Source of the DNA: Luteimonas padinae
GTDB taxonomy: Bacteria > Pseudomonadota > Gammaproteobacteria > Xanthomonadales > Xanthomonadaceae
NCBI RefSeq assembly: GCF_014652935.1
Contig: NZ_BMZT01000005.1
Coordinates: forward strand, 186,001-250,000
Direction of reading: 5' to 3'
DNA: 64,000 bases
Within the stretch, counting starts at the first letter, position 1. Each line of letters opens with the position of its first letter. The notes under the pieces were generated by a model that searched no databases, was not told the DNA's origin, and was given only the letters and a program-made list of their open reading frames with translations. Position numbers and translations under genes: made by a program. This document shows positions 3,729-17,405 of the stretch, piece after piece.

Positions 3729-5633
3729 TCAGGGACCCCGCTCCGCGTGCAGACGGGCCGTGAAGTCGGCCAGCGGCATCGAACCCAGGTCTTCCCCTCC
3801 GCGCGTGCGTACCGCAACCGCCCCCTGCTCCTTCTCGCGGTCCCCCACCACGAGCAGGTACGGCACGCGCGCGAGCGTGTGCTCGCGAATCTTATAGCCG
3901 ATCTTCTCGTTGCGCAAATCCGATTCCACCCGGAGCCCTTGATCCGCAAGGGTTTTCCGGACCTCGGCAGCCCAGTCGGCCTGGGCGTCGGTGATGTTCA
4001 TCACCACCGCCTGGACCGGGGCCAGCCAGGCCGGGAAGGCACCGGCGTGGTGCTCGATCAGGATGCCGATGAAGCGCTCCATCGAACCCACGATGGCGCG
4101 GTGCAGCATGACCGGCGTGCGCTTGGCACTGCTCTCGTCGACGTATTCAGCGCCAAGGCGGCCCGGCATCATGAAGTCGACCTGCATCGTGCCCAGCTGC
4201 CAGGTGCGGCCGATGGCGTCGCGCAGGTGGTACTCGATCTTGGGGCCGTAGAAGGCGCCCTCGCCCGGCAGCTCCTGCCACTCGACCCCGGCCGCGGACA
4301 GTGCGCCGCGCAGGGCGGCCTCGGCCTTGTCCCAGGTGGCGTCGTCGCCCAGGCGCGATTCGGGGCGCAGGGCCAGCTTCACCTGCACGTCGGTGAAGCC
4401 GAAATCGGCGTAGACCTTCATGGCCTGGGCGTGGAAGTCGGTGACCTCCTGCTCGATCTGGGCCTCGGTGCAGAACACATGGCCGTCGTCCTGGGTGAAG
4501 CCGCGCACGCGCAGGATGCCGTGCAGGGCGCCGGAGGGCTCGTTGCGGTGGCAGCTGCCGAACTCGCCGTAGCGGATCGGCAGGTCGCGGTAGCTGTGCA
4601 GGCCCTGGTTGAACACCTGCACGTGGCCCGGGCAGTTCATGGGCTTCACCGCGTAGGTCCGCTTCTCGGACTCGGTGAAGAACATGTTCTCCTTGTAGTT
4701 GTCCCAGTGGCCGGACTTCTGCCACAGGCTGACGTCGAGGATCTGCGGGCAGCGCACCTCGCCGTAGCCGCTGGCGCGGTAGACGCCGCGCATGTACTGC
4801 TCCACCACCTGCCACAGGGCCCAGCCCTTGGGGTGCCAGAACACCAGGCCCGGGGCCTCTTCCTGCAGGTGGAAAAGCTCCTGCTGCTTGCCGATGCGGC
4901 GGTGGTCGCGCTTCTCGGCCTCCTCGATGCGCTGCATGTAGGCCTTGAGCTGCTTGGCATCGGCCCAGGCGGTGCCGTAGATGCGCTGCAGTTGCTCGTT
5001 CTTGGCATCGCCGCGCCAGTAGGCGCCGGAGGTCCGCAGCAGCTTGAAGGCCTTCAGGAAGCGCGTGTTGGGCACGTGCGGGCCGCGGCACATGTCCACG
5101 TACTCCTGGTGGTGGTACAGGCCCATGGCCGTGACCTCGGGGCCCATGTCCTCGATCAGGCGCAGCTTGTAGTCCTCGCCGCGGGCCTTGAACGTCTCGA
5201 TCACCTCGTCACGCGGGGTCGTGCGCTTGATGACGTCGTACTCGGTGTCGATCAGCTCGCGCATGCGGGCCTCGATCGCAGCCATGTCCTCCGGCGTGAA
5301 GGGCTGGGCGCGCCAGATGTCGTAGTAGAAGCCGTCCTCGATCACCGGGCCGATCACCATCTTGGCGTCCGGGTAGAGCTGCTTGACCGCGTGGCCCACG
5401 AGATGGGCGCAGGAGTGGCGGATGATCTCCACGCCCTCCGGGTCCTTCGGGGTGAGGATCTGCAGGCTGGCATCGTGGTCGATGAGGTCGGAGGCATCGA
5501 CCTGGCGGCCGTCGACCTTGCCGGCCACGGTGGCCTTGGCCAGGCCCGGGCCGATGGACTCGGCGACCTGCATGACGGTGACGGGGGCGTCGAACTCGCG
5601 GCGGCTGCCGTCTGGGAGCGTGATCGTGATCAT
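3729..5633 (-). CDS. thrS: Threonine-tRNA ligase
   Basis: Charges tRNA-Thr and edits mischarged Ser-tRNA-Thr; 634 residues, normal for bacterial ThrRS. The start is [15 protein letters not shown], opening the N-terminal TGS domain (residues 1-61). The editing domain follows, with [13 protein letters not shown] and later CRGPHVPNT. The class II catalytic core carries [10 protein letters not shown] and FRRNEPSG-like [12 protein letters not shown], then the anticodon-binding domain (residues 535 onward). It heads the thrS-infC-rpmI-rplT-pheST cluster. A leader with a terminator hairpin and a small open frame precedes it. Confidence 0.98.
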
Positions 5634-5690
5634 GGCGATGGGGTGTCTGGTGGGTTCGGACCACGGTATTGGCCGAGGCCCGTGGGCATG

Positions 5691-5715
5691 AAAAAAGGCG
5701 CCACGCGGGCGCCTT
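5691..5715 (-). terminator. Intrinsic terminator in the thrS leader
   Basis: On the minus strand a GGCGCC stem with a 5-base loop is followed directly by TTTTTT, 57 bases before the thrS start. It could end the virB operon or act as an attenuator for thrS. A promoter-like TAGAAT lies upstream of it and downstream of virB6, so transcripts begun there must cross this hairpin to reach thrS. Confidence 0.7.
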
Positions 5716-5737
5716 CCGGAATCGGCCGCGGGCGGGA

Positions 5738-5764
5738 TCAGCAATGGGCGGAGGTAGTGTCCAT
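5738..5764 (-). CDS. Possible thrS leader peptide
   Basis: A short open frame reads MDTTSAHC and ends 22 bases before the leader terminator. Two of its eight codons are threonine, next to each other. Position and content would suit ribosome-mediated attenuation of thrS by threonine supply. Eight codons with two threonines is weak evidence, there is no strong ribosome binding site, and chance is a real alternative. Confidence 0.25.
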
Positions 5765-5822
5765 GTCGCACGCTCGGCCGGCGCGTTGGCGCGGGCCACC
5801 TGTCTCCCGGGGATGCGGCCCG

Positions 5823-5863: not shown

Positions 5864-6868
5864 TCAGCCGCCGCGTCCGACCACGCCGGGTGGCAGCCCC
5901 GAACCCGGCGGCGGGGCCGCCCCGCCTCCGGTTGCCACGCCCACCGCGTTGTAGGGCGAAAACTGGCCCAGCACGCCGTTGAAGAACATCGCCGCCATCG
6001 GCGGCGCGCTGACAATCAGCATGGTCAGGATCAGGCCCATGCCCCCCTGCTGCATCGCCATCGAAGCCAGACTCTCCTGCGGCGCGCCGGTTAGCCAGTC
6101 GGCCACCCAGAACGCCAGGCCCACGGCGATCAGCATGTCCAGGGCGAGCGTCACCATCACCGTCAACAGCGCGAGCGAGAACAGCGTCCCCAAGCCGTAG
6201 TACAGCCATTTGCTGAACAACTGGCGCGTGGCCCGGAACAGCAGGCAGAGGATGAAGAGCGGCCCAAGCCCCACCACCAGCGCGATGGCCACCTTGTTCA
6301 ACAGCAGCATGGCCGCGGCGATGATCGCCGGTCCGCCAAGTCCGACGCCTGCAAACCACATTGCGCGTGATTTGCGCCCTTCGGTGAGCAGGTCGCCGCC
6401 AGGGTCGATCGAATCGATCACCTGGAGCGCGACCTGCATGATCGCCAGCACCTCGTCGATGTCTTCATAGGCGCCGCCCTCCTCCCGGCCGGTCACCATC
6501 TGCGACACGGCCTCTCCCAGCCCGTCGGTGAGCACGCGGTATGTCGAACCCGCGCCCGCCGCCGCGCCGGTCGCGATACCGATCACCAGCACCGCCTTCA
6601 GCGCATCCCCCACCAGCGCCATCATCGGCTCCCGGGACAGCCCCGTGGCGATGCGATAGCCCTGGACCAGGATCCAGAGCGTGAGCAGGGTCAGCGCCGC
6701 GCTGCCGGCGACCGTGACCACGCGGCCCAGCAGGTTCCCCGCGAACTCGCCGATCTCGTCATCGAGGAAACCGTTGATCTCCTGGAAAAAGACCATGTTG
6801 GGCAGGCCCTGGGCCTGGGCCCAGTCCATCCCGGCCGCCACCAGCCATGCCACGCTCTCGATCGCCAC
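5864..6868 (-). CDS. virB6: Type IV secretion inner-membrane protein VirB6
   Basis: VirB6 is the polytopic inner-membrane component of the T4SS channel. The 334-residue product has about six hydrophobic segments, for example VVTVAGSAALTLLTLWILV, VVGLGPLFILCLLF and LALLTVMVTLALDMLI, and the VGLGPLF-type stretch typical of TrbL/VirB6. The tail after about residue 305 is rich in glycine and proline (GGGAAPPPGSG). It is the last gene of the virB operon, 10 bases after virB5. Confidence 0.9.
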   Translation of the reverse strand: MAIESVAWLVAAGMDWAQAQGLPNMVFFQEINGFLDDEIGEFAGNLLGRVVTVAGSAALTLLTLWILVQGYRIATGLSREPMMALVGDALKAVLVIGIATGAAAGAGSTYRVLTDGLGEAVSQMVTGREEGGAYEDIDEVLAIMQVALQVIDSIDPGGDLLTEGRKSRAMWFAGVGLGGPAIIAAAMLLLNKVAIALVVGLGPLFILCLLFRATRQLFSKWLYYGLGTLFSLALLTVMVTLALDMLIAVGLAFWVADWLTGAPQESLASMAMQQGGMGLILTMLIVSAPPMAAMFFNGVLGQFSPYNAVGVATGGGAAPPPGSGLPPGVVGRGG

Positions 6869-6878
6869 GTCCGCGCCC

Positions 6879-7619
6879 CTACCGGTCGCGCTCGCGGGCG
6901 GCCCGGAGCGCGAGCTTCAGCATCACGCCCTGCACGACCGCACCGCGCGCCCCGGAACCTTCGAGGGCTTCGTTGGCGACGCGGACATGGTTGTCGCGCA
7001 GCGCGCGCAGCGCGGTGTCGTAGGCCGACATCAGCCGCTCGCCGCTCTGGACGTCGTTCTGCAGCTGGCCCTGGATCGAGAGGATGCGGTTGGTGTTGGA
7101 GGCGAGCTTGCCCTCCTCCTCCGGCTGGATGCCACCGCGCTCTGCATAGGCCTCGCGCAGCTCCCGGTCACGCTCGTTCACGTCGTCCAGCATCGCCACC
7201 AGGGCGTTGAAGCGGCGGTTCTCGGTCCGCACGATGGACACGCAGTAGGCGTGCAGTTCCGCGCCCTTCGGATTCCTGGCCGATGCCGTTCCGCAGCGCT
7301 TGTCGACGCCGGCATCCTCTTCGACCTGCTGGAAGTTCTCGCGGTGGCTGCCGCCGCCCGCATAGGCCTCGCCGGTCACCAGCGCCTGCTCGAACTGCTT
7401 GTCCAGGGTCTGCAGCTGTTCGACCTGCCGCTTGTAGTCCTCGATCATCTGCTGGTACTGGGCCACCCATCCCAGCGCGGTCTTGACGGTGTGCGGGACA
7501 TCCACCACCGCCCACTGTGCGGACGCAGGCCACGCCGCCATGGCGCCACACACCCCCAGTACCAGCGCCGCCATCCGCAGACGGGGCGTCCTTGCCCCTG
7601 CAACTTCCCTGTCGTCCAT
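6879..7619 (-). CDS. virB5: Type IV secretion protein VirB5 (minor pilin)
   Basis: Periplasmic or pilus-tip component of the T4SS, 246 residues. The start at MDDREVAGART gives a hydrophobic signal segment (MAALVLGVCGAMAAWPASA) with probable cleavage near residue 34. The mature part begins QWAVVDVPHTVK and is mostly predicted helix: QYQQMIEDYKRQVEQLQTLD near 55-75 and a C-terminal helix bundle with ANTNRI-like SNTNRILSIQGQLQ. That pattern matches VirB5/TraC proteins. It lies 20 bases after virB4 and 10 before virB6. VirB5 varies greatly between systems, so position supports the call as much as sequence does. Confidence 0.82.
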   Translation of the reverse strand: MDDREVAGARTPRLRMAALVLGVCGAMAAWPASAQWAVVDVPHTVKTALGWVAQYQQMIEDYKRQVEQLQTLDKQFEQALVTGEAYAGGGSHRENFQQVEEDAGVDKRCGTASARNPKGAELHAYCVSIVRTENRRFNALVAMLDDVNERDRELREAYAERGGIQPEEEGKLASNTNRILSIQGQLQNDVQSGERLMSAYDTALRALRDNHVRVANEALEGSGARGAVVQGVMLKLALRAARERDR

Positions 7620-7639
7620 GTCCCTCTCCCTGGGTTGAA

Positions 7640-10093
7640 TCAGCTGCCGCCATGTCCATCGGCGGTCCCGGATGGCCGCCTGCCCCTGCGCCTCGCCTGG
7701 AACGGCCCGAGCCAGTCCTGCGGGCGCAGCGCGTCCGGCGCCACGCCTCGTGCGGCGGCCTGTTCGGCGACCACCTCGTGCATCACCGCGATGTTGTCCG
7801 TGGAGGCCGAGATAACGGCAAGAATGTCGTCCAGCCCTTCCAAATCGAGCCTGCAGACGGCCGAAGCGTGCCCCTGCTTGACCAGGAAGCTTCGCGAGCG
7901 CTCGTCGAGCGAAACGACGACGCGATACTCGGCCTCGGTGAGCTTCAGCCCTTCCACATAGTCCCGACGGCTGGCGTTGGGATTGGGCAGCAGCACGAGC
8001 GTCGCGGTCTGTTCGACCAGCGCGGCGGCGATGTCGCTCGCCAGCGCGTCCTCCGGGCTCTGCGTCGCGAAGATCCCGAGACCGTTCTGCTTGCGGATGG
8101 TCTTCTGCTTGTTGCGCGCGAACGCCTTGAGCGCGCCGCCGCCGTCGAGGATCTTCCAGAACTCGTCCATCACGTAGACCAGCCGGCGGCCATCGATGAT
8201 CCCTTCCAGCCGGTGCAGCAGATAGCGCACCACCGGCACCCTGACCTCGGCGTTGTCGAGGATGTCGGTGTAGTCGAAGCCGATGATGTTCGAGCGCGAC
8301 AGGTCGATCGTGTCCACCGGGTTGTCGAACACCCACCCCAGGCTGTGGCCCGCGGTCCACTTGCGCAGGCGAGCGTGGAGGCCGTCGTCGCCCATGTTCG
8401 GCAGGCTCTTCTGCAGGTTGGCCATGCTGCGCAGGTGCATGGGCGTGTCCAGCAGCCCGGCCACGGCGCGGAAGATGTCCTCGTCCTCGCGCGCGGTGTA
8501 CGCCGGCTTGCCCGCGAGCAGCTTCACCAGCTCCACCAGGAACTGGGCGTTGGCATCGCTGCGCTCGCACTGCAGGGGATTGAAGCCCGTGGGCCGGCCG
8601 TTCTCCAGCGCCAGGTAGTTGCCGCCGCAGGCACGCACGAAGATCTCGGCCCCGCGGTCCTTGTCGAAGAAGAACACCGTCGGCGCGGGGTCGAGCTTCT
8701 GCGACTGCGCCAGCAGGAAGTTCACCAGGGCCGTCTTGCCGGTGCCGGACTTGCCGATCACGAGGGTGTTGCCCAGCGCCTTCTCGCCCAGCGAATCCTC
8801 GGCCGGATGCGTGGCGTGGAAGTTGAAGTGGTAGGGCTGGCCGTTGCTGGCCTGCAGCGTGGTCACACAGTCGCCCCACGGGTTGCCCGCGCGCTTGCCG
8901 CCGGCGAAGTTGTGGAGCGGCGAGAGGCCGAGGAAGTTCAGCGAGCTGACATTGGCCAGGCGCGTCCGGTAGCGCCAGTTGCCGGGAAGCTGGGCATAGA
9001 ACGCCGACGCGACGGCAAGATCCTCCTTCGCGGACACGAAGCCGGCATTCGAGAGCTCCGCGCGGGCCTCGGCGACGTGCCTGGACAGCAGGTCCTGGCT
9101 GGCGGCATGGACGGCGAGCGAGAAGTGGTACTCGCCCAGCACGAAGTTTCCCGAAGCGAGCTGGTCCATCGCCTGGTCGAGCTCGGCGATCTGGCTGACC
9201 GCGCGGTCGCCGGACGACACCATCATCCCCTTGGTGCGGTCGAGCACCCGCAGCGCGTCCTGCCGGCCCATGGGACTGAAGGACTGCGTGAGCACGTACT
9301 CGAAGCCGAGATACTTGAGCCCGTTGAGGATCCCGGGCCAGGTGGCGTCCGTGTACTCCTTGATGTTGAGGATGGCCCCGTATTCGTGGGTGCCGTCCGG
9401 AAGCGCGACGACGAAGTCGCCCGTCCGTGCCGAGAACGTGTGCCGGCTGACGGAGAGATAGTCGGCGATCGGCGCGTGCAATACCGGAACGGGCTCGTCC
9501 AGCCGGTTGAGGACGTAGCCATACAGCTCCAGCACTTCGGAAAACGCGATCCCGTTGTCGCGCTCGTACATGCCGAGGCGCTGCGGGGAATAGTCCCTGA
9601 GCACCGCTTCGACGTTGCCTGCGAGCTCGTGCACCCGCGCGATCGCCTGCTGCTCCGCCGCGGCCAGCCTGTCCAGGTCGGCGGAGCGCTCGACCAGGCG
9701 ACGGCCCGCGACCACGGGCCGGTAAAGCAGGGTGAGGTAGAGATCGTTCTGCAGTGACTCCTGCCCTTCCAGCTTGCGGAAATAGGCGTCCGAGAGGTCC
9801 TGGTTGAAGGCGCCTTCGAAGCGCCCTCCCCCTTCGATGCGCCGACGCCCGCGGATGTCGTGGGTCCAGAACGCGACGTTGGCGAAATCCGGCGCCCGCA
9901 GCGTCTGCAGCATGCGGTTGAAGGTGGCATGCCGGTGCTCGAGATCCCACTCCTCCCGGCCGACGAACGGCAGCCCGTCAAGCCGCCACGCGACGAGGTA
10001 GTCCCCCCCGGTGGTCTTGACCACGTCGCTGGCGACATGGCTCGACAGCGGCACGAAGCCGGCGACCGCGGCATCGGCGACCCGGGGGTTCAC
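7640..10093 (-). CDS. virB4: Type IV secretion ATPase VirB4
   Basis: Cytoplasmic ATPase at the base of the T4SS, needed for pilus biogenesis and transport. Length 817, normal. The N-terminal CagE/TrbE/VirB4 domain covers about residues 15-400. Walker A is GKSGTGKT near 447-454, Walker B is VYVMDEFWKIL near 640. The reading frame starts at GTG, overlapping the virB3 stop as GTGA, which implies translational coupling. Among the VirB proteins this is one of the clearest by sequence. Confidence 0.96.
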   Translation of the reverse strand: MNPRVADAAVAGFVPLSSHVASDVVKTTGGDYLVAWRLDGLPFVGREEWDLEHRHATFNRMLQTLRAPDFANVAFWTHDIRGRRRIEGGGRFEGAFNQDLSDAYFRKLEGQESLQNDLYLTLLYRPVVAGRRLVERSADLDRLAAAEQQAIARVHELAGNVEAVLRDYSPQRLGMYERDNGIAFSEVLELYGYVLNRLDEPVPVLHAPIADYLSVSRHTFSARTGDFVVALPDGTHEYGAILNIKEYTDATWPGILNGLKYLGFEYVLTQSFSPMGRQDALRVLDRTKGMMVSSGDRAVSQIAELDQAMDQLASGNFVLGEYHFSLAVHAASQDLLSRHVAEARAELSNAGFVSAKEDLAVASAFYAQLPGNWRYRTRLANVSSLNFLGLSPLHNFAGGKRAGNPWGDCVTTLQASNGQPYHFNFHATHPAEDSLGEKALGNTLVIGKSGTGKTALVNFLLAQSQKLDPAPTVFFFDKDRGAEIFVRACGGNYLALENGRPTGFNPLQCERSDANAQFLVELVKLLAGKPAYTAREDEDIFRAVAGLLDTPMHLRSMANLQKSLPNMGDDGLHARLRKWTAGHSLGWVFDNPVDTIDLSRSNIIGFDYTDILDNAEVRVPVVRYLLHRLEGIIDGRRLVYVMDEFWKILDGGGALKAFARNKQKTIRKQNGLGIFATQSPEDALASDIAAALVEQTATLVLLPNPNASRRDYVEGLKLTEAEYRVVVSLDERSRSFLVKQGHASAVCRLDLEGLDDILAVISASTDNIAVMHEVVAEQAAARGVAPDALRPQDWLGPFQARRRGRRPSGTADGHGGS

Positions 10094-10395
10094 ACGCGCC
10101 TCCCGGGCGCACGGCCGGCCAGCGGCGAGAACGACCAGTCACCCCCGCGGAGGCCGCGATTGCGCACCTTGGCGAGGACCTGCCAGCGCAGGCCCAGCAG
10201 ACGGAAGACCATCTCGTCGCGCCTGGCCATCTGGCGCATGCCGAGGATCACCAGCGGCATCAGCACCAGCAGCAGCAGGTTCACGTACACCGCGAGCAGC
10301 AGGCAGGCCCCGGCGCCGATGAAGAACGGCACGTAAGGCACGCCCAGGAACATCGCCGGCCGGGTGCAGCCGCGGAAGAGCACGTCCTTACGCAC
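10090..10395 (-). CDS. virB3: Type IV secretion protein VirB3
   Basis: Small inner-membrane subunit that works with VirB4. A GTG start gives VRKDVLFRGCTRPAMFLGVP, the usual VirB3 opening (hydrophilic lead, then R-G-x-T-R-P). The hydrophobic pair VPYVPFFIGAGACLLLAV and NLLLLVLMPLVILGMRQMA follows; 101 residues in total. An ATG 21 bases earlier is possible but would overlap virB2 further. It overlaps the end of virB2 and is coupled to virB4. Confidence 0.9.
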   Translation of the reverse strand: MRKDVLFRGCTRPAMFLGVPYVPFFIGAGACLLLAVYVNLLLLVLMPLVILGMRQMARRDEMVFRLLGLRWQVLAKVRNRGLRGGDWSFSPLAGRAPGRRV

Positions 10396-10795
10396 GGAAC
10401 ACCGGCAGGACGGCATCGAGCATCGCCGTGCACTCGCCCGCCTCGGGCCCGAGCAGCATGCGGGCGATCTGCGCCGCCGCGCCGATCAGCAGGCCGCCCA
10501 CCAGGATCGGAGCCACGTCCGAGATCCGCTTGTGCGCGAAGGCGATCTGGTAACCGGCAAAGATGATGGCGATGGTGACCACCGCGATCGAGGCCATGTT
10601 GAGCAGGCCGTTGACGTTGTCGAAGAAGCCGCAGACCTTGGCGTCGGCGCCGCCGAAGGCCTGCGCCAGGACTGCGGCGGGCGCGGCGGCGAACGTGGCG
10701 ACCAGGCCCCTGGTCGCGCTGGGCAAGCCGGGCCGGCGGCGTTCGTGGCGGCCGGTGGAGCGGGCGGAACCGGTTCGGTGCGTGCTGGTGTCCAT
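10388..10795 (-). CDS. virB2: Type IV secretion major pilin VirB2
   Basis: Pilin precursor, 135 residues. An unusually long basic lead (about 30 residues) precedes a hydrophobic signal region ending near AAVLAQA. The mature pilin holds two membrane helices, MASIAVVTIAIIFAGYQIAF and APILVGGLLIGAAAQIARML, separated by the short basic loop AHKRISD, as in VirB2/TrbC. It follows virB1 by 56 bases and overlaps virB3. The true start may lie inside the annotated lead. Confidence 0.9.
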   Translation of the reverse strand: MDTSTHRTGSARSTGRHERRRPGLPSATRGLVATFAAAPAAVLAQAFGGADAKVCGFFDNVNGLLNMASIAVVTIAIIFAGYQIAFAHKRISDVAPILVGGLLIGAAAQIARMLLGPEAGECTAMLDAVLPVFRA

Positions 10796-10851
10796 GATGC
10801 GTCCTTGCGTTGGTGGTGGTTGGGCGCCGCGTTTCCTGTCGCGGCGGAGTG

Positions 10852-11598
10852 TCAGAACACGAAGGCGGCGTCCCTGCCGGGCCCGGGGCCCTCGGGATCG
10901 TCCGTTGACGCCGCAGGTGGCGCTGGCCGCGGGCCGGTCACGTGCGGCACGAACGGCTGCGTCGAAGGCGTCGGTACCGGTGGCAGGAACACGGTCTCCG
11001 CGGGCACGACGGCGTCCGTAGCGACCTGGACCTGCGTGGCCGCGAGCGCCGCCGGCATGGCGCGGCGCTCGCGCAGGCTGGCGACGCCTGCACCGCGCGC
11101 ATCCACGGGTCGCCGCCTGGCCAGCGGGGTGGCCGGCGGGGATTCCGTGGCCGGGAGCACGCCCGCCCGCTGCATCGAACCCTGCACCTTCTGCACGTAG
11201 CCGTCGCGGAAGCCGCGGACGAAGTTGCCGGAGTAGTAGCAGCTGAAAGCCTTGCCCCAGTCACCCCCGGCGCGCGCATGGCAGTCGGCGAGGATCCGCG
11301 CGCCAGCCGCGAGGTTCGGACACGCCGTGAAGGCCTTCTCGTAGCTGTCCAGCCCCTGCTTCGCGAGGTTGTGCCGGTTCACCTGCGCCAGGCCCAGCGA
11401 GAAGTTGTAGCCCTCGCGCTCGAGATGCTTCGCCGTCGCGACGGCCTCCTCGAGGCTGCGCGGCTGCCTGGCCAGGCGTGCGCCGACAACCCCGATGGCA
11501 TATGGATTGAACGAGGATTCCACGCTCACCACATGTTCCATCACGGTGATCGGCACCGCCAGGTCCTGGCAGGCCAGCGCCTCGAGCCCGGGGATCAT
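10852..11598 (-). CDS. virB1: Type IV secretion lytic transglycosylase VirB1
   Basis: Periplasmic muramidase that opens peptidoglycan for assembly of the secretion channel; 248 residues. It begins MIPGLEALACQDLAVP. The SLT fold has the catalytic glutamate in SVESSFNPYAIG (about residue 27), then FSLGLAQVNRHNL and DCHARAGGDWGKAFSCYYSGN. After about residue 160 a low-complexity, proline- and alanine-rich tail follows, typical of VirB1. No cleavable signal peptide is evident at this start. The ATG overlaps the virB11 stop (ATGA). Confidence 0.93.
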   Translation of the reverse strand: MIPGLEALACQDLAVPITVMEHVVSVESSFNPYAIGVVGARLARQPRSLEEAVATAKHLEREGYNFSLGLAQVNRHNLAKQGLDSYEKAFTACPNLAAGARILADCHARAGGDWGKAFSCYYSGNFVRGFRDGYVQKVQGSMQRAGVLPATESPPATPLARRRPVDARGAGVASLRERRAMPAALAATQVQVATDAVVPAETVFLPPVPTPSTQPFVPHVTGPRPAPPAASTDDPEGPGPGRDAAFVF

Positions 11599-12641
11599 GC
11601 CTGCCCTCCGGCCACAGCCCCGCCACCGAACTCGATCCCGGTGATATGCCGGCGCCCACCCTGCGCGCTGACATGGACAACGATGTCGATGGTCATCGCC
11701 AGGAGGCGTCGAATGGTGTCGAACTCCAGCCCCGCGCCTTCGTCCGAGGCCTTCACCATCAGCGCGAGCTGGTCCCAGGTCTGGGCCGTGCTGCCCGCGT
11801 GGCAGCTCGTGATCGACCCCGGATGGCCTGATGCGCAGTTGCGGATGAAGTAGAACGCCTCGTCCCCGCGGAGCTCGGCCAGGATGATCCGGTCCGGCTT
11901 CATCCGCAGGCAGGCCTCCATGCACGACTTGGCGGTGACCTTCGCCGTGCCCTGGCCGCCCTTGGAGTACAGCAGGTGCACGGCATTCGGCTGGCTGATG
12001 AAGAGTTCGCGCGCGTCCTCGATCGTGACCAGGCGCTCGTCGGCCGGGATGTGTTCGACCAGCGCCTTCATGAACGTCGTCTTGCCGCTGCCGGTCGCGC
12101 CCGACACCACGATGTTCCGCCGCAGCTGGACCGCACGCCGGAAGAACTCGGCGTGCCGGCCCGCGGCGTGGAGTTCCAGCAGTCCGGCATCGCGCGTGCC
12201 GTCGCCCCCGCTGGCCTGGATCGACGAGAAGAACCCGTCCGCTTCGTAGTCCTCCAGGCGCCGGAGCCGGCGCGACGGCAGGCGGATGGTGATCGACACG
12301 GCACCCGCTTCGCAGGCGGGCGGGATCACGAACTGCGCCCGCTGGCCGGTGGGGAAGGTCAGCGAGACCACCGGTTCGGCGTCGGTGATGCGCTGGCCCG
12401 TATTGCTCTCGTTGACTACGGCGGTGCAGAACTGGCGTGCCCGCTCGAAGCTCAGGCCCGGGACAGCCACCCGCTGCCAGCCCCCGTGCCGCTCCAGCCA
12501 GACCTCGCCGGGCCGGTTGATGCAGATCTCGGTCACGTCCGGCGCCGTCATGTATGTATCGATGCCGAGCACCTGGTACTGGTACTCGAGGAAGGCGTCG
12601 CCTGTCCCCGCGGTCGTGGCAGGGGCTGCGGCAACCGTCAC
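11595..12641 (-). CDS. virB11: Type IV secretion ATPase VirB11
   Basis: Hexameric traffic ATPase of the T4SS, 348 residues. The N-terminal domain covers about residues 15-150. Walker A GATGSGKT lies at 181-188, the Asp box is around VTIEDARELFI, Walker B around DRIILAELRGDEAF, and the His box near GSITSCHAGST. The GTG start overlaps the virB10 stop as GTGA. The match to the VirB11/PulE family is unambiguous. Confidence 0.96.
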   Translation of the reverse strand: MTVAAAPATTAGTGDAFLEYQYQVLGIDTYMTAPDVTEICINRPGEVWLERHGGWQRVAVPGLSFERARQFCTAVVNESNTGQRITDAEPVVSLTFPTGQRAQFVIPPACEAGAVSITIRLPSRRLRRLEDYEADGFFSSIQASGGDGTRDAGLLELHAAGRHAEFFRRAVQLRRNIVVSGATGSGKTTFMKALVEHIPADERLVTIEDARELFISQPNAVHLLYSKGGQGTAKVTAKSCMEACLRMKPDRIILAELRGDEAFYFIRNCASGHPGSITSCHAGSTAQTWDQLALMVKASDEGAGLEFDTIRRLLAMTIDIVVHVSAQGGRRHITGIEFGGGAVAGGQA

Positions 12642-13780
12642 AGCTGCGCCACCACGGCCGAGAAGTCGACGTCGCGGGCAACGTAGACATTGAGCAGGGT
12701 GCCCTGCTGGATGGAAACGGTCGGCGGCCGGCGGTTGTCCAGCGCCTGGTTCGCGAGCCGCTCCATCGTGCGCGCGGTGCTGCTTTCGTAGGGCGAACTC
12801 ATCACCACCCCACCCTCGCCGATCACGGTGCCGGCCGGCCCTTCCTTGGCGGCCGCGTACTTGAACGCGTCGCTGACCAGGCTGACCAGCAGCGCCGAAC
12901 CGATCCTCGAGCCCCAGTGCGCGCTGTAGTGGCCGGGATGGCCCGCGCCTCCCAGCCCGTCCACGCCAGGGCTGGCCATGCTGATGTCGATGCCCTCGGG
13001 CGTGGTGATCCGGTCCCAGACCACCGCCACCCGCGGCCCCCTGGGCTCGGCGTCGTAACGTCCGAGCACCTTGGAGCCGCTTGGCAGCAGCAGGCGCCGG
13101 CCGTTGATCGAATACACCGGCTCGGTGACGACGCAGGACGTGAACCCGGGAATGTCGGTGACGATGCGCGTTTCCAGCACGCAGCGGATGTAGGTACCGC
13201 GCACGAGCAGCGCATCCGGACGGGTGATCGGCCTCGCGGCGGTCGTCGCGGGCCCCGGCGGCCCGGCCGCGTCGGCTGGCTCGGCTCCCGGCAGCCCCGC
13301 GAGCATCGCCTGCATATACGGGTCTGGCGCCTGAGCGGCCTCGGCCCCGGCGCTCCGTCGTTCGCGCAGGCTCGGCGCCGATGGCGGCTGGGGCAGTGCG
13401 AGCGCAGGTCCGTTCCAGGACGGCGTATCCGGCGCCCGCGGCGGCAGTGGCACGACCGGAACCGGCTCCATCGCCATCGGTGGCGCCGGTGGAGGTGCTG
13501 GAGCCGCTCCCACGCGCGGCAGCTCTGGAATCACGACATCCTGCGCGCGCGGGCCGGCGGTGGCGGCATCGTCGCCTCCAGCCGCGCGCAGCATGCCGAC
13601 GATGGCCAGCACCAGCAGCAGGATGATGCCGGCCAGGAACACCAGGGCCTTGCGATTGAGGCGCTGGACATCCTCGGCGCGAAGCACCGGCGCGGCGGCG
13701 TCGAGGTCGGGAGCCGCCTGGCGCGCTGCATAGTGTCCCTGACCCGCAGCCACGGAATCGTCCCTGCCAGCTGCGGTCAT
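12638..13780 (-). CDS. virB10: Type IV secretion core protein VirB10
   Basis: Energy-sensing core component that spans inner and outer membranes; 380 residues. There is a short cytoplasmic lead, one membrane segment near residues 45-64 (ALVFLAGIILLLVLAIVGML), and a proline-rich periplasmic stretch at about 75-150. The C-terminal TrbI/VirB10 barrel domain starts near residue 190, with GTYIRCVLETRIVTDIPGF, LPSGSKVLGRYD and GTLLNVYVARDVDFS. The ATG overlaps the virB9 stop. Confidence 0.96.
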   Translation of the reverse strand: MTAAGRDDSVAAGQGHYAARQAAPDLDAAAPVLRAEDVQRLNRKALVFLAGIILLLVLAIVGMLRAAGGDDAATAGPRAQDVVIPELPRVGAAPAPPPAPPMAMEPVPVVPLPPRAPDTPSWNGPALALPQPPSAPSLRERRSAGAEAAQAPDPYMQAMLAGLPGAEPADAAGPPGPATTAARPITRPDALLVRGTYIRCVLETRIVTDIPGFTSCVVTEPVYSINGRRLLLPSGSKVLGRYDAEPRGPRVAVVWDRITTPEGIDISMASPGVDGLGGAGHPGHYSAHWGSRIGSALLVSLVSDAFKYAAAKEGPAGTVIGEGGVVMSSPYESSTARTMERLANQALDNRRPPTVSIQQGTLLNVYVARDVDFSAVVAQL

Positions 13781-14538
13781 CGTGCGTTCCTCCTCAGTCC
13801 CACCACCTCGCGGCCGTGGCGCACGACCAGGAACGGATATGTGCCATGCACCACGAGGACGTCGCCTTCGACCGTGGTGTTGACCACGAACTCGTCGCCG
13901 TTCCGGCTCCGTCGGCCGAACACGGCCGGGAAGGTTCCGGTGGGCAGCGACGCGTGGCGTCCCATGCGCAGGTAGGTGAAGCGGCCGTCGTCGTAGACGT
14001 GCATCGGGACCAGCCAGGCAGGGGCGCGGCGGGCCGCGACGTCGTAATCGAAGTGGTAGGCCCTGTCCCCGGCCAGCACGGTGCTCTGCCCGGCGCCGTC
14101 CGGCTCGTCCGCCTGCGCGAAGGCGGCATCGGCGGGATAACGGAAGCCGATCCTGTACTGCACGCCTGCGCGCCGCACCTGTTCGAGGCTGGTCCAGTCG
14201 GCAGCCACGACCTTCAGCTCGAAAATGTAGGAGTGCGCCCGCGTCCGCACCAGCATGTTCGTGTCCACGTCGACGTCGCGCGGGCGCAGGTAGAACACGT
14301 TGCCGCGGCGCGTCAGGTCCCAGCCAGCGCTGAAGCCGGCGCTGAAATCGAGAATCTCCTCGGCCGGATCGAGCTCGATCTGGGTGGTGATGCCGAGCGC
14401 CGTGCGGACCTGGTAGATGCCGTCGGGCACGTAGTCGAAGGTATCGACCTGCGGCGATGCACTGGCCGGTTGCATCGCGGCGGGACACGCGAGCGGAAGG
14501 CACATCCACAGGACAAGCGCGGCGATGACGTGTCTCAT
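13777..14538 (-). CDS. virB9: Type IV secretion core protein VirB9
   Basis: Outer-layer component of the VirB7/9/10 core complex, 253 residues, with a signal peptide (MRHVIAALVLWMCLPLACPA). The N-terminal domain shows DGIYQVRTALGITTQIELD and the middle has SYIFELKVVA. The C-terminal domain, with RAPAWLVPMHVYDDGRFTYL and FVVNTTVEGDVLVVHGTYP, is the part that packs against VirB7. It overlaps virB8 and virB10 by four bases on each side. Confidence 0.95.
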   Translation of the reverse strand: MRHVIAALVLWMCLPLACPAAMQPASASPQVDTFDYVPDGIYQVRTALGITTQIELDPAEEILDFSAGFSAGWDLTRRGNVFYLRPRDVDVDTNMLVRTRAHSYIFELKVVAADWTSLEQVRRAGVQYRIGFRYPADAAFAQADEPDGAGQSTVLAGDRAYHFDYDVAARRAPAWLVPMHVYDDGRFTYLRMGRHASLPTGTFPAVFGRRSRNGDEFVVNTTVEGDVLVVHGTYPFLVVRHGREVVGLRRNAR

Positions 14539-15377
14539 TGGCTGGCTCCTTCCGTGGCGACTCCGCCGACGTTCGCGTGCGTTGCCTCCGGCAGGTCACT
14601 GTCTGCCACGAAGGGGTCGGGCCCGAATACCGCAGGCTCGCTTTCCGCGGGTGGCAGCGGCGCATAGTCGGTGTCGACGCGGTAGCTGGTGACCTGGAAC
14701 CCCAGCGGATTCTCGAGCCGGTCCGGTTCGTCCATGCGCAACGCGAGGTTGTAGGTGAAGCCCAGCGTGGCGATGCGGCTGTCCAGCGGCCGCGTCGCAC
14801 CGCTGGCCTTGTCGTACACGCTGCGCTGGAAGCGCACGGTGGCGCCGCCAGGCGCGCCATCCGGCCCATCGAGAAGCTGGATGCTCAGGATCCGCACGCG
14901 GATCGCGCGGCTGCGCCCCCAGGTATTGAACGGGCTGTCCGCATTGTTGGCGGCATGCAGCGCGGCGTATTCCTTCCCGACCTCCGGCGCCGACATCGCG
15001 TGCACCGCGCGCCAGTCGCGCAGATTCATCATCGCCACGTCGTAGGACTCGCGCAGGCTGATGAAGCCCGCCACGTTCGCGCGCGCGATCGCTTCGCTGG
15101 CGGTGAGGCTCCGGTGCCGGAAGTCCTCGTCCAGCCGCGCGACGGTGGCGTTGCCGCTGGACGCATCGGCCATGACCAGGAACGGCACGCGCTCCTTCAG
15201 CGGCATGACCCGCAGGTAGCCGGCACCAAGCAGCAGCGCGAGCATCGAAGCCACGGCCGCCACCCACCAGGCCCGGCGTTCGCCCCGACGCGCAAGGTCG
15301 GCGATGCTGGTTTCGTAGTTCACCGCGCGGGCGATCGCTTCCCTGCCCGCCGGCCCCGGCTGTCTGTCACTGGACAT
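14535..15377 (-). CDS. virB8: Type IV secretion inner-membrane protein VirB8
   Basis: Bitopic assembly factor, 280 residues from the ATG at MSSDRQPGPAG; an ATG four codons earlier is also possible. One membrane segment lies near residues 38-57 (AWWVAAVASMLALLLGAGYL). The periplasmic VirB8/NTF2-like domain follows, with VPFLVMADASSGN and GFISLRESYDVAMMNLRDW. The last 40 residues are a low-complexity tail. It is 43 bases after virB7 and overlaps virB9. Confidence 0.93.
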   Translation of the reverse strand: MSSDRQPGPAGREAIARAVNYETSIADLARRGERRAWWVAAVASMLALLLGAGYLRVMPLKERVPFLVMADASSGNATVARLDEDFRHRSLTASEAIARANVAGFISLRESYDVAMMNLRDWRAVHAMSAPEVGKEYAALHAANNADSPFNTWGRSRAIRVRILSIQLLDGPDGAPGGATVRFQRSVYDKASGATRPLDSRIATLGFTYNLALRMDEPDRLENPLGFQVTSYRVDTDYAPLPPAESEPAVFGPDPFVADSDLPEATHANVGGVATEGASQ

Positions 15378-15420
15378 TCTGCAATCCATGCAATGTTGTT
15401 GGAGCGCCGCCAGGCGCCGG

Positions 15421-15840
15421 TCAGCCGTCCGCAGCGGCCTGCGCCATCACCACGAGCCGGTTCCCTTCCATCCGCAGCAAAAGCCCCTGCCCGCCGAACG
15501 CGCGTGCCAGCTGCGCAAGCGCGTCGGGCAGGCTTTGCGCACGCACATCGCGCACGGGCTGGTGGAGGGTGAAATCGGCAGGATGCCGGTAGTCGAGCTC
15601 GCTGCCGCTGTCACGGGCCCAGCGCATCAACAGGTTGCGCAGCGTCCCGTCCATCGGCGAGGCTTGGTACACCGGCGCCCCCACCAGCGGAATCGCTTCG
15701 GTCGCCGCCGCATACTGGTTCGCGGGCGTCCACCTGCCCCCGAAGTCGCGCGCCTCGCGGCTGGCGCAGCCGGTGCCGGCGGACATCACCACCACCGTGG
15801 CCGCAACAGCGCAGACGAATAAAAAGGGCTTCCTGCCCAT
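15421..15840 (-). CDS. virB7: VirB7 lipoprotein with C-terminal N0-like domain
   Basis: First gene of the operon and outer-membrane lipoprotein of the T4SS core. The 139-residue product has a signal sequence and lipobox with Cys25 (AGTGC). Classical VirB7 is only about 50 residues; here about 65 more form a compact domain ending LPDALAQLARAFGGQGLLLR, close in pattern to the TcpQ/secretin N0 domain. A VirB7 plus N0 fusion is the known hallmark of the Xanthomonadaceae T4SS described in Xanthomonas citri. The ribosome binding site GGGAGGG stands just before the ATG. The family assignment is inferred from pattern, not from a search. Confidence 0.85.
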   Translation of the reverse strand: MGRKPFLFVCAVAATVVVMSAGTGCASREARDFGGRWTPANQYAAATEAIPLVGAPVYQASPMDGTLRNLLMRWARDSGSELDYRHPADFTLHQPVRDVRAQSLPDALAQLARAFGGQGLLLRMEGNRLVVMAQAAADG

Positions 15841-15999: not shown

Positions 16000-16112
16000 T
16001 ACGGTTTTTGTGGCATTTGTGTGACTTCGGCCAGAGAACGGAGAAGTCCTACGACGCTTTCAGATCCCGGTCCCGGAGCGAAGCCGTCATGCAGTCGCCG
16101 TATCATGGCCGC

Positions 16113-17405
16113 ATGCAACCACACGCACGATCCACGGCAAGGCTTGCCGTGCTGCTGGCCGCCGCCTTCGCCCTCGCTGCCTGCAGCACCACGCCCGGAC
16201 AGCCGGCGCCCCCTCGTTTCGACGGCCAGCACCAATCCACGGCGGCCCCGGACGCACTGCTGCTGATCTCCATCGACGGCCTGCATCCCGACCGCATCAA
16301 CCCCACCGACTCGCCCAACGTCGCCCGACTCGCCGCCACCGGCGTCCAGGCGCGCTGGATGACGCCCTCCTACCCCAGCCTCACCTTCCCCAACCACTAC
16401 ACGATCGCCACCGGACTGCGCCCGGACCGCCACGGCATCGTCCACAACTCGATGCACGACGAGGAACTTGGCACCTTCCGCCTCTCCGACCGCGACGCCG
16501 TCGGCACCAGCGACTGGTGGGGCGGCGAGCCGATCTGGGTGGGCGCTGAAAAGGCCGGCCTGCCCACGGCCACGATGTTCTGGCCGGGCTCGGAAGCCGA
16601 AGTCGCGGGCGTGCGGCCCACGCGCTGGCACCTGTACGAGGAGTCGATCCCGGCGGCCGAGCGCGCCGCGACCGTCGGCGGCTGGCTGCTGGAGCCGGAG
16701 GCCACGCGTCCGCGCCTCGCAACGCTCTATTTCCACGCCGTCGACAGCGCGGCGCACGCGCACGGCCCGGATTCGGACGAGGCGCGCGCGGCGCTGGCGG
16801 AGATCGACGCCGCCATCGGCCAGCTCCTCGACCAGCTCGCGCGTGGCGGCCGCCTGGAGCACACCAACATTATCCTGGTGTCCGACCACGGGATGGCGCC
16901 GGTGCCGGCAGGCCAGCAGCTCTCCGTCAGCGACATGGTCACGATGGAGCAGGCGCGCCTGTCGAGCATCGGCCAGGTGGTCCAGGTGCAGCCCGATCCC
17001 GGCTTCGAGGCCGAAGTGGAGGCGCGCCTGCTCGGCCGCCACGACCACTACGAGTGCTGGCGCCGCGAGGCGCTGCCCGCGCGCTGGCACTACGGCACGC
17101 ATCCGCGCATCCCCGCCATCGTCTGCCAGATGGACGAAGGCTGGGACGCGCTGCCGCCGCAGGTGCTGGAATCGCGGGCGCAGGGCGGCACGCGCGGCTC
17201 GCACGGTTACGACCCGGCGCTGCCCTCGATGCGCGCGGTGTTCATCGCCAGCGGGCCGGCGTTCCGACAGGGCGCCGTGATCGATCCGATCGACAACGTC
17301 GACGTGTATCCGCTGATGGTGCGGCTCTTGGGGATCCCGGCGGCCGACCACGACGGCGACGCCGCGGCGCTGCTGCCTGCACTTCGCGAACCCGCGCGCC
17401 GTTGA
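16113..17405 (+). CDS. Nucleotide pyrophosphatase/phosphodiesterase-family lipoprotein
   Basis: Predicted membrane-anchored hydrolase of the alkaline phosphatase superfamily (ectonucleotide pyrophosphatase/phosphodiesterase type), 430 residues. The start at MQPHARSTARLAV gives a lipobox at Cys24 (FALAAC). Metal ligand Asp55 is in LLISIDGLHPD and the nucleophile Thr91 in YPSLTFPNHYTIATG. Further ligands are in YFHAVDSAAHAHGPD and ILVSDHGM. Family members cleave phosphodiester or pyrophosphate bonds of nucleotides or lipids, and the substrate here cannot be read from sequence. It is divergent from the virB operon and faces the next gene tail to tail. Confidence 0.88.
   Translation: MQPHARSTARLAVLLAAAFALAACSTTPGQPAPPRFDGQHQSTAAPDALLLISIDGLHPDRINPTDSPNVARLAATGVQARWMTPSYPSLTFPNHYTIATGLRPDRHGIVHNSMHDEELGTFRLSDRDAVGTSDWWGGEPIWVGAEKAGLPTATMFWPGSEAEVAGVRPTRWHLYEESIPAAERAATVGGWLLEPEATRPRLATLYFHAVDSAAHAHGPDSDEARAALAEIDAAIGQLLDQLARGGRLEHTNIILVSDHGMAPVPAGQQLSVSDMVTMEQARLSSIGQVVQVQPDPGFEAEVEARLLGRHDHYECWRREALPARWHYGTHPRIPAIVCQMDEGWDALPPQVLESRAQGGTRGSHGYDPALPSMRAVFIASGPAFRQGAVIDPIDNVDVYPLMVRLLGIPAADHDGDAAALLPALREPARR

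What the first reader, a model, noticed from the sequence alone, without database searches (positions are those of the whole stretch)
5864..15840. Complete Xanthomonad-type virB operon without virD4 or an effector gene beside it
All eleven virB genes are present in the order 7-8-9-10-11-1-2-3-4-5-6 and most overlap by 4 bases. VirB7 is extended by about 65 residues in the N0-like manner known from the Xanthomonadaceae bacteria-killing T4SS. In Xanthomonas the coupling protein VirD4 and effector/immunity pairs lie next to the operon; here the upstream side is a phosphodiesterase and the downstream side is thrS. No relaxase is present, so conjugation is unlikely. VirD4 and effectors must be elsewhere, or the system is incomplete.
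Basis: partly seen in the sequence, partly recalled or inferred. Interest (0 to 1): 0.6.

Follow-up and report, generated by a model that had tools for sequence, protein, structure and literature searches.

The report
Bacteria-killing secretion system, split locus
A Luteimonas bacterium carries a complete bacteria-killing type IV secretion system whose substrate-loading gene and toxin genes lie elsewhere in the genome, a split that a group of related species shares, and comparison with relatives points to a possible second way of tagging toxins for such systems.

Summary
An intact virB7-8-9-10-11-1-2-3-4-5-6 operon lies on the minus strand at 5864-15840, between thrS and a phosphodiesterase gene. 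VirB7 has a real N0 domain: E 1e-15 to X. citri 3ov5, and the predicted fold superposes at 0.8-1.1 A. The missing parts exist: an X-type virD4 on another contig beside uvrB and hutU, and three XVIPCD effectors over Pfam's cut-off, each preceded by a small gene with a signal-like N-terminus (putative immunity), plus one sub-threshold candidate. All four published X-T4SS criteria are met. The split is not decay. Eight Luteimonas genomes share both sites; in four single-contig genomes the loci lie 1.25-1.55 Mb apart along the contig; the aligned genes have no stops and dN/dS below 0.42. Across 52 Luteimonas genomes X-VirB4 and X-VirD4 occur in the same 29. So this is a known kind of system with an inherited split locus. 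Relatives gave the most novel lead: another VirD4 lineage has an upstream membrane-protein gene, and toxin-like proteins in its genomes often end in a ~45-residue tail instead of XVIPCD.

The parts
15421..15840 (-). virB7, 139-aa lipoprotein with C-terminal N0 domain (about residues 57-133)
   Evidence: phmmer to X. citri VirB7 6gyb 2e-26 and 3ov5 1e-15; fold match 0.8-1.1 A
14535..15389 (-). virB8
   Evidence: Pfam VirB8 5e-40, residues 22-240 of 284, so a C-terminal extension
13777..14538 (-). virB9
   Evidence: Pfam CagX 8e-47
12638..13780 (-). virB10
   Evidence: Pfam TrbI 4e-45; start at 13780 with SD-like sequence, 4-base overlap with virB9
11595..12641 (-). virB11 ATPase
   Evidence: Pfam T2SSE 1e-26
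10852..11598 (-). virB1 lytic transglycosylase
   Evidence: Pfam SLT 9e-10
10388..10795 (-). virB2 pilin
   Evidence: Pfam TrbC 7e-15
10090..10383 (-). virB3 (start uncertain: 10383, 10395 or 10416)
   Evidence: Pfam VirB3 1e-21 (on the longest form); starts listed
7640..10093 (-). virB4 ATPase
   Evidence: Pfam CagE_TrbE_VirB 4e-48
6879..7619 (-). virB5
   Evidence: position; tblastn matches in relatives; start
5864..6868 (-). virB6
   Evidence: position; tblastn matches at the same position in relatives
3729..5771 (-). thrS, downstream flank of the operon, conserved in 8 of 8 split-clade genomes (the true start is probably internal to this ORF)
   Evidence: translation; flank comparison
16095..17405 (+). 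type I phosphodiesterase, divergent, upstream flank conserved in 8 of 8 split-clade genomes
   Evidence: Pfam 7e-92; flank comparison

Best explanation
This is the structural operon of a complete, selectively maintained Xanthomonadales-type antibacterial T4SS (X-T4SS) whose twelve-subunit machine is encoded at two distant chromosomal sites. VirB1-11 build the envelope channel and pilus, with a peripheral VirB7-N0 ring. VirD4, made from the uvrB-hutU site, recruits effectors through their C-terminal XVIPCD. The effectors (one Tle1-like lipase, two M23-type endopeptidases with a peptidoglycan-binding domain, and perhaps a fourth protein) would be injected into neighbouring Gram-negative cells, while products of adjacent upstream genes protect the producer. 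Shown here: parts, order, N0 fold, co-occurrence of VirB4 with VirD4, conservation of both loci, purifying selection. Inferred from X. citri and Stenotrophomonas: assembly, VirD4-XVIPCD binding, secretion, killing and immunity.
For: Complete operon. N0 by sequence and fold. Orphan X-type VirD4 of 561 aa with T4SS-DNA_transf 1e-104. XVIPCD hits at E 4e-33, 2e-19 and 7e-13 in proteins with a Tle1-like or an M23 (sub-cut-off) plus PG_binding N-terminus; each has an upstream small gene with a signal-like N-terminus and no Pfam match. X-VirB4 (E<=1e-100) in 29 of 52 Luteimonas genomes and X-VirD4 (E<=1e-80) in exactly the same 29, in G002 as a piece at a contig end (Fisher 3e-15, not phylogeny-corrected). 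VirB4 and VirD4 distances correlate: Mantel r 0.91, 0 of 9999 permutations as high; r 0.95 within the eight split genomes, untested. Both loci keep their flanks in the eight genomes: thrS 8 of 8, phosphodiesterase 8 of 8, uvrB 8 of 8, 103-aa gene 8 of 8, hutU 7 of 8 with the eighth near a contig end. No stops in the aligned parts and dN/dS 0.03-0.41 in all 84 gene-by-genome comparisons. All eight have at least one XVIPCD hit.
Against: No experiment. The window genome is a draft in 35 contigs, so its own virB-virD4 distance is inferred from single-contig relatives. Only 1-5 XVIPCD hits per split-clade genome, against 8, 14 and 22 in the other three X-T4SS Luteimonas of the companion-less class, so the arsenal is small. 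The motif before N0 reads TEAIPL, not the published [T/S]EIPL; other X-T4SS VirB7s vary there too. Synonymous differences reach 0.64 per site in distant pairs, so dN/dS is approximate. Correlated VirB4 and VirD4 distances also follow from shared ancestry of the genomes.
Confidence: 0.9

Rival explanations
1. The system is a decaying remnant: virD4 was moved away, regulation was lost and the machine no longer fires.
For: Few effectors in the split clade (1-5 XVIPCD hits); separation of virD4 from its operon.
Against: No stops in the aligned parts and dN/dS 0.03-0.41 in all 12 genes across seven comparisons; both sites conserved in eight genomes; same 29 of 52 genomes for VirB4 and VirD4; open effector frames with upstream neighbours in the split clade.
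Confidence: 0.07
2. The operon is a conjugation apparatus and uses a relaxase elsewhere in the genome.
For: The genome has a relaxase at G000:C4:88891 (E 6.7e-22), a sub-cut-off one at C9:79382, and a second T4SS.
Against: The second T4SS (C9) has its own coupling protein next to it and lies about 14 kb from the C9 relaxase hit, which fits a self-contained conjugative element. Neither virB nor the orphan virD4 has a PF03432 hit on its contig. VirB7-N0 and XVIPCD proteins are X-T4SS hallmarks.
Confidence: 0.03
3. VirB works with the TraG-type coupling protein of the C9 element rather than with the orphan VirD4.
For: Both coupling proteins are in the genome.
Against: The orphan VirD4 is the X-type one: the best 80 named loci found with it (of 202) are Xanthomonadales, Variovorax or MAGs, and 54 of the 80 have at least one virB match in the stretch held. 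It co-occurs with X-VirB4 in 29 of 29 genomes.
Confidence: 0.03

Closest known systems
X-T4SS of Xanthomonas citri 306 (chromosomal vir locus)
   Same: Same twelve subunits, same virB7-11/1-6 order in one operon, N0-bearing VirB7 (about 40% identity to solved structures), XVIPCD effectors mostly dispersed in the genome
   Different: In X. citri virD4 is upstream of virB7 and one effector/immunity pair ends the operon (PMC6536674 section 5, PMC7286519 section 6, read); here virD4 and the detected effectors are on other contigs and the operon is flanked by housekeeping genes
X-T4SS of Stenotrophomonas maltophilia K279a
   Same: Same machine; reported to serve killing of other bacteria, with a virD4 mutant made to test it (PMC6759196, passages and start of abstract seen)
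   Different: Linked vir locus; more effectors (13 candidates in PMC8262851, start of abstract seen in a listing only)
Separated virD4 in other Luteimonas (G017, G019, G024)
   Same: virD4 on a different contig from virB
   Different: Different site; virD4 there has the companion gene upstream; separate changes on the tree

Membership tests
X-T4SS (criteria in PMC6536674, Table 1 note) | Located in chromosomal DNA | tested here: met
   Flanked by thrS and other housekeeping genes; the same site is on 2.9-3.0 Mb single contigs in G015, G037, G039 and G040
X-T4SS (criteria in PMC6536674, Table 1 note) | VirB7 with C-terminal N0 domain | tested here: met
   3ov5 E 1e-15; model to 3ov5 rmsd 0.8 A over 78 columns, Z 16.6, 1.1 A over 83 residues; model pLDDT 81-97 in blocks of ten from residue 51
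[quoted passage not shown]
   Eleven in the window (virB5 and virB6 by position and tblastn), virD4 at G000:C12:14348-16030
X-T4SS (criteria in PMC6536674, Table 1 note) | Putative effectors with C-terminal XVIPCD in the genome | tested here: met
   Three PF20410 hits over the cut-off, one below it at 21.1 bits, two weaker
X-T4SS | VirB8 C-terminal extension | tested here: met
   Pfam VirB8 ends at residue 240 of 284
X-T4SS | [T/S]EIPL motif before N0 in VirB7 | tested here: inconclusive
   TEAIPL here; IPL or LPL is kept but the two residues before vary in other X-T4SS VirB7s
X-T4SS | VirD4-dependent secretion and killing of Gram-negative neighbours | not testable with these tools
   needs bench work
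Conjugative T4SS | Relaxase associated with the operon | tested here: not met
   PF03432 search of the genome: hits only on C4 and C9, none on C5 or C12; other relaxase families were not searched
Conjugative T4SS | oriT associated with the operon | not tested
   no search made

The most novel reading that the evidence does not exclude
The bacteria-killing T4SS family uses at least two recruitment codes. One is XVIPCD read by VirD4, as in the window's system. The other, in a distinct VirD4 lineage of Luteimonas and apparently in other genera, is a ~45-residue C-terminal tail (roughly VxRLLxAAxxGD...S..GQxW) paired with a ~190-aa membrane protein whose gene lies directly upstream of virD4 or directly downstream of tail-bearing genes. 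That protein would be an adaptor that carries tail-bearing toxins to VirD4. Tle1-like lipases occur with either ending, and GH19-like and class 3 lipase-like proteins appear to, so the endings look like swappable signals.
Probability: 0.5. Interest if true: 0.75.

Novelty: new member of a known kind. Interest (0 to 1): 0.45.

Why it matters
It shows that an antibacterial T4SS can stay intact with its coupling protein encoded over a megabase from the machine, so linkage of virD4 or effectors should not be required when such systems are annotated. It gives a natural two-locus system for asking how VirD4 and VirB are kept in proportion. The comparison also exposed genomes with a full X-T4SS but no XVIPCD hit at the threshold used; most of these carry proteins with a different conserved tail, which can be tested directly as a second secretion signal.

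Tried and rejected
VirB7 without N0: rejected. Weak XVIPCD hits at C1:101032 and C6:85822 in the window genome: set aside; they lie on the strand opposite to what read as ordinary genes (for the neighbours). sigma-70-type promoters and terminators around virB7: none found by the simple scan. CsrA-like GGA motifs in the virB7 leader: 9 against about 6 expected from composition, not persuasive. Class-specific VirD4 residues: with 28 of the 29 proteins (the partial G002 left out), 4 of 7 fixed differences fall in the all-alpha domain as I delimited it (residues 196-350, my estimate); hypergeometric P 0.12, inconclusive. Companion as a plasmid gene: no match in 72,556 plasmid records. Companion and tail against solved structures: nothing convincing; the tail profile's best hits are ankyrin-type helices of tankyrase (E 0.01), a warning that some tail hits may be helical-repeat look-alikes. 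The tail region of two proteins gives sub-cut-off hits to Pfam CATASP (E 7e-4 for L313; 0.085 for L311); not followed. Divergent-XVIPCD profile A1: hits in 4 of the 13 X-T4SS genomes that lack a PF20410 hit (G002, G014, G019, G032), so 'no XVIPCD' is partly a limit of the Pfam model; G014 had given a sequence to A1. A test of independent contrasts had only one usable pair.
Full report
CHECK OF THE OBSERVATION. Translation of the minus strand gives virB7, 8, 9, 10, 11, 1, 2, 3, 4, 5 and 6 in that order between 15840 and 5864. Of nine proteins run against Pfam, eight are over their cut-offs and VirB7 gives only TcpQ at 9e-5, below its cut-off; virB5 and virB6 were not run and rest on position and on tblastn matches in relatives. 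With the starts I chose, 5 of 10 junctions are 4-base overlaps; four others are gaps of 10-56 bases and virB2/virB3 depends on the start. Upstream and divergent is a type I phosphodiesterase gene. Downstream is thrS.

N0 DOMAIN. VirB7 (139 aa, within the 130-185 aa given for X-T4SSs in PMC6536674) matches X. citri VirB7 6gyb at 2.1e-26 and the isolated N0 crystal structure 3ov5 at 1.1e-15. An AlphaFold model from 16 aligned VirB7s (mean pLDDT 80) matches 3ov5 with rmsd 0.8 A over 78 columns (Foldseek) and 1.1 A over 83 residues, Z 16.6. Behind the three X. citri VirB7 entries come a type IV pilus protein (Z 9.2), phage baseplate chains (8.7-8.9) and then DotD and secretin N0 domains (about 5-8), scores that alone would show little. 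The motif before N0 reads TEAIPL; the published form is [T/S]EIPL. Variants such as PQAIPL and PQSIPL occur in other X-T4SS VirB7s.

THE MISSING PARTS. The window is G000:C5:186001-250000 of a 3.1 Mb draft genome in 35 contigs. Its orphan VirD4 is 98% identical to one in Luteimonas colneyensis, so I take the organism to be Luteimonas. VirD4 family PF02534 hits twice: C12:14372-15667 and C9:94124-95476. The C9 copy lies in a Trb-type cluster with its own VirB4-like gene, and a relaxase hit below the family cut-off lies about 14 kb away. The C12 copy is X-type and sits between uvrB-side genes and a 103-aa gene followed by hutU. XVIPCD (PF20410) hits: three over the cut-off (E 4e-33, 2e-19, 7e-13), one below at 9.8e-4, and two weaker (0.007, 0.11) that look like chance. 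The three have a Tle1-like lipase or M23 (below its cut-off) plus PG_binding N-terminus. Directly upstream of each is a small gene with a signal-like N-terminus, which I read as immunity; those beside the two M23 effectors look alike by eye. The fourth candidate (C3) has no Pfam N-terminus.

IS THE SPLIT REAL AND OLD. In 52 Luteimonas genomes X-VirB4 (E<=1e-100) occurs in 29 and X-VirD4 (E<=1e-80) in the same 29 (Fisher 3e-15; the genomes are related, so this is not a true probability). In eight of them, G000, G004, G008, G015, G037, G039, G040 and G048, the two loci lie far apart or on different contigs. Four of these are single contigs; along the contig the distance is 1.55 Mb (G015; 1.36 Mb the other way if circular), 1.41 Mb (G040), 1.32 Mb (G039) and 1.25 Mb (G037). 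G015 has the length and coordinates of L. granuli NZ_CP042218.1. The eight form one clade with 100 SH-aLRT in both the VirD4 and the VirB4 tree (quick method). In 8 of 8 the virB operon is complete and lies between thrS and the phosphodiesterase gene; in 8 of 8 virD4 has uvrB and the 103-aa gene nearby, hutU in 7 of 8 with the eighth near a contig end. Three more genomes (G017, G019, G024) have virD4 on another contig and without these neighbours. The split character needs three changes on each tree. Between G000 and its seven partners all twelve genes were aligned: no stops in the aligned parts, dN/dS 0.03-0.41. Distances of VirB4 and VirD4 correlate (Mantel r 0.91, 0 of 9999). Among the best 80 named loci (of 202) around VirD4 relatives, 54 have some virB match in the DNA held; the four closest (L. 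colneyensis, L. arsenica, L. terricola, L. granuli) have none, though L. terricola's stretch is short (12.4 kb); 22 more of the 80 also have none, and how far off virB lies there was not looked up; L. mephitis has virB7 directly after virD4.

HOW IT WORKS. By the X. citri model the VirB proteins form the envelope machine, VirD4 picks up effectors by their XVIPCD, and toxins attack the target's wall or membrane. Linkage is not needed for that; in X. citri virD4 and virB7 already have separate transcription starts (PMC7286519, abstract and section 6 part 1 read). What is shown here is anatomy and selection; secretion and killing are inferred.

KNOWN OR NEW. All four criteria of PMC6536674 (sections 4, 5, 11, 13 and part 1 of 7 read) are met, so the system is an X-T4SS. 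That review lists one Luteimonas strain and says virD4 may lie upstream, downstream or between virB segments; in what I read I saw no virD4 far from virB. The listings of searches named none either, which is limited evidence.

A LEAD FROM THE RELATIVES. Of the 29 X-T4SS genomes, 18 have a ~190-aa gene, with what reads as one membrane segment, directly upstream of virD4 (E<=5e-28), and their VirD4s form one clade with 100 SH-aLRT. PF20410 (E<=1e-3) finds nothing in 13 of these 18 and something in 11 of 11 without the gene. It also hits three genomes without X-VirB4 (G029, G038, G049). A profile of divergent XVIPCDs recovers 4 of the 13. A second ending was then seen in toxin-like proteins just past virB6. 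Its five-sequence profile A2 hits, at E<=1e-3, 17 of 18 companion genomes, 0 of 11 companion-less X-T4SS genomes (best G000 0.002, G022 0.006) and 3 of 23 genomes without X-VirB4 (G005, G029, G049; G026 just misses at 0.00101) (Fisher for 17/18 against 0/11 3e-7). G018, G044 and G050 gave sequences to A2 and match by construction; without them it is 14 of 15. The broader profile A3 is less clean: among the 36 Luteimonas sampled in the family search it hits 14 of 14 companion genomes, 3 of 8 companion-less X-T4SS genomes (G004, G022, G037) and 4 of 14 without X-VirB4 (G005, G026, G045, G049). Eight of those 14, and G005, gave sequences to A3; without them it is 6 of 6. Of 20 A2 loci examined, 19 gave a protein at the local threshold (L254 did not). 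In 18 of the 19 the tail lies within the last ~85 residues, read from the printed sequence where the reported stretch was a secondary one; in L244 (G050) an XVIPCD follows it; L250 is only a 101-aa ORF. Toxin types with the tail: Tle1-like, Lipase_3, GH19+M23+PG_binding, SLT+M23+PG_binding, SLT-like, VgrG3-C-like lysozyme, and unknowns. In the split clade Tle1-like proteins over the Pfam cut-off carry XVIPCD (G000, G004, G048). GH19 plus XVIPCD is seen only below the GH19 cut-off (G040, G048) and not at all in the G015 protein that looks alike by eye; the lipase-plus-XVIPCD of G015 just passes Mbeg1-like and is below Lipase_3. So the swap is firm for Tle1-like toxins and likely for the other two.

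FAMILY LEVEL. In 395 sampled genomes of the family, the companion profile A4 (E<=1e-8) hits 90 and A3 (E<=1e-3) hits 92: both 73, companion only 17, tail only 19, neither 286 (Fisher 1e-44; outside Luteimonas 57, 16, 14, 272, Fisher 6e-38; not phylogeny-corrected). By genus: 12 both, 1 companion only, 6 tail only, 35 neither of 54 (P 6e-7; genus sets read by hand). A4 counts any member of the companion family, not only copies beside virD4. I then entered by hand 93 companion rows and 75 tail rows, not all rows, and the printed tail list was itself cut; 24 pairs lie within 1.5 kb, 22 on one strand with the tail gene upstream, gaps 115-582 bases. This is a lower bound from picked rows, not a rate. 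Eight regions were then read: both genes in seven, only the companion in L317 at the threshold used; L311, L312 and L316 pair a lipase-type protein with a companion, L310, L313 and L314 have short ORFs with no toxin domain found (L314's was not run), and L315 is a virD4-type companion locus with the two genes 13 kb apart. As a control, 8,893 ORFs of the 80 named VirD4 loci, of which one has a companion (Pseudoxanthomonas japonensis), gave no A3 hit at 1e-3. Neither domain has a Pfam or NCBIfam match over a cut-off in the proteins run. PMC10989847 (abstract and section 7 part 1 read) reports T4SS-effector homologues that lack XVIPCD; whether they carry this tail was not tested.

LIMITS OF THE LEAD. 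The companion could be an immunity protein rather than an adaptor. Genomes are related, and only one independent contrast exists within Luteimonas. T6SS was not excluded as the exporter, although tail genes past virB6 and the companion beside virD4 point to the T4SS. The tail's helical motif resembles ankyrin-type helices. Three companion-less genomes also give A3 hits.

Noticed in passing
Luteimonas genomes G002, G006, G009, G012-G014, G016-G019, G023, G024, G027, G031, G032, G044, G047, G050 (e.g. L180:14130-14687, L184:5744-6313): A ~190-aa putative membrane protein gene sits directly upstream of virD4 in 18 of 29 X-T4SS genomes, marking a separate VirD4 clade; 13 of the 18 have no PF20410 hit at 1e-3.
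   Followed up: yes
L240-L259 (genus hits), L310-L316 (other genera): A ~45-residue C-terminal tail without a Pfam or NCBIfam match over a cut-off ends many toxin-like proteins and is in some genomes followed by a member of the same companion family.
   Followed up: partly
L191:1793-3433, L192:1972-3618, L193:1715-3637 (G023, G016): Proteins that carry a PF20410 XVIPCD followed by a second, divergent XVIPCD-like domain near the C-terminus.
   Followed up: partly
L190:2566-4179 (G050): One protein with the short tail followed by an XVIPCD, and a companion-family hit downstream.
   Followed up: no
L313:2383-2922, L311:2056-3264: The tail region gives sub-cut-off hits to Pfam CATASP, CATRA-associated small protein.
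   Followed up: no
G000:C9:86000-104000 (L010): What looks like a conjugative element: Trb-type T4SS genes with a TraG-like coupling protein, a VirB8-like gene and, on the upstream side, what read as RND efflux genes; a relaxase hit below the cut-off lies at C9:79382.
   Followed up: partly
G000:C4:88891-89220 (L186): A relaxase-family hit over the cut-off, on a different contig from both T4SS clusters.
   Followed up: no
L009:5942-6253: A 103-aa secreted-looking protein with a faint, sub-cut-off TonB plug-like match, conserved next to virD4 in all eight split-clade genomes.
   Followed up: no
G005, G029, G038, G049: Genomes without X-VirB4 that still have XVIPCD and/or tail hits: orphan effectors, lost machines or incomplete assemblies.
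   Followed up: no
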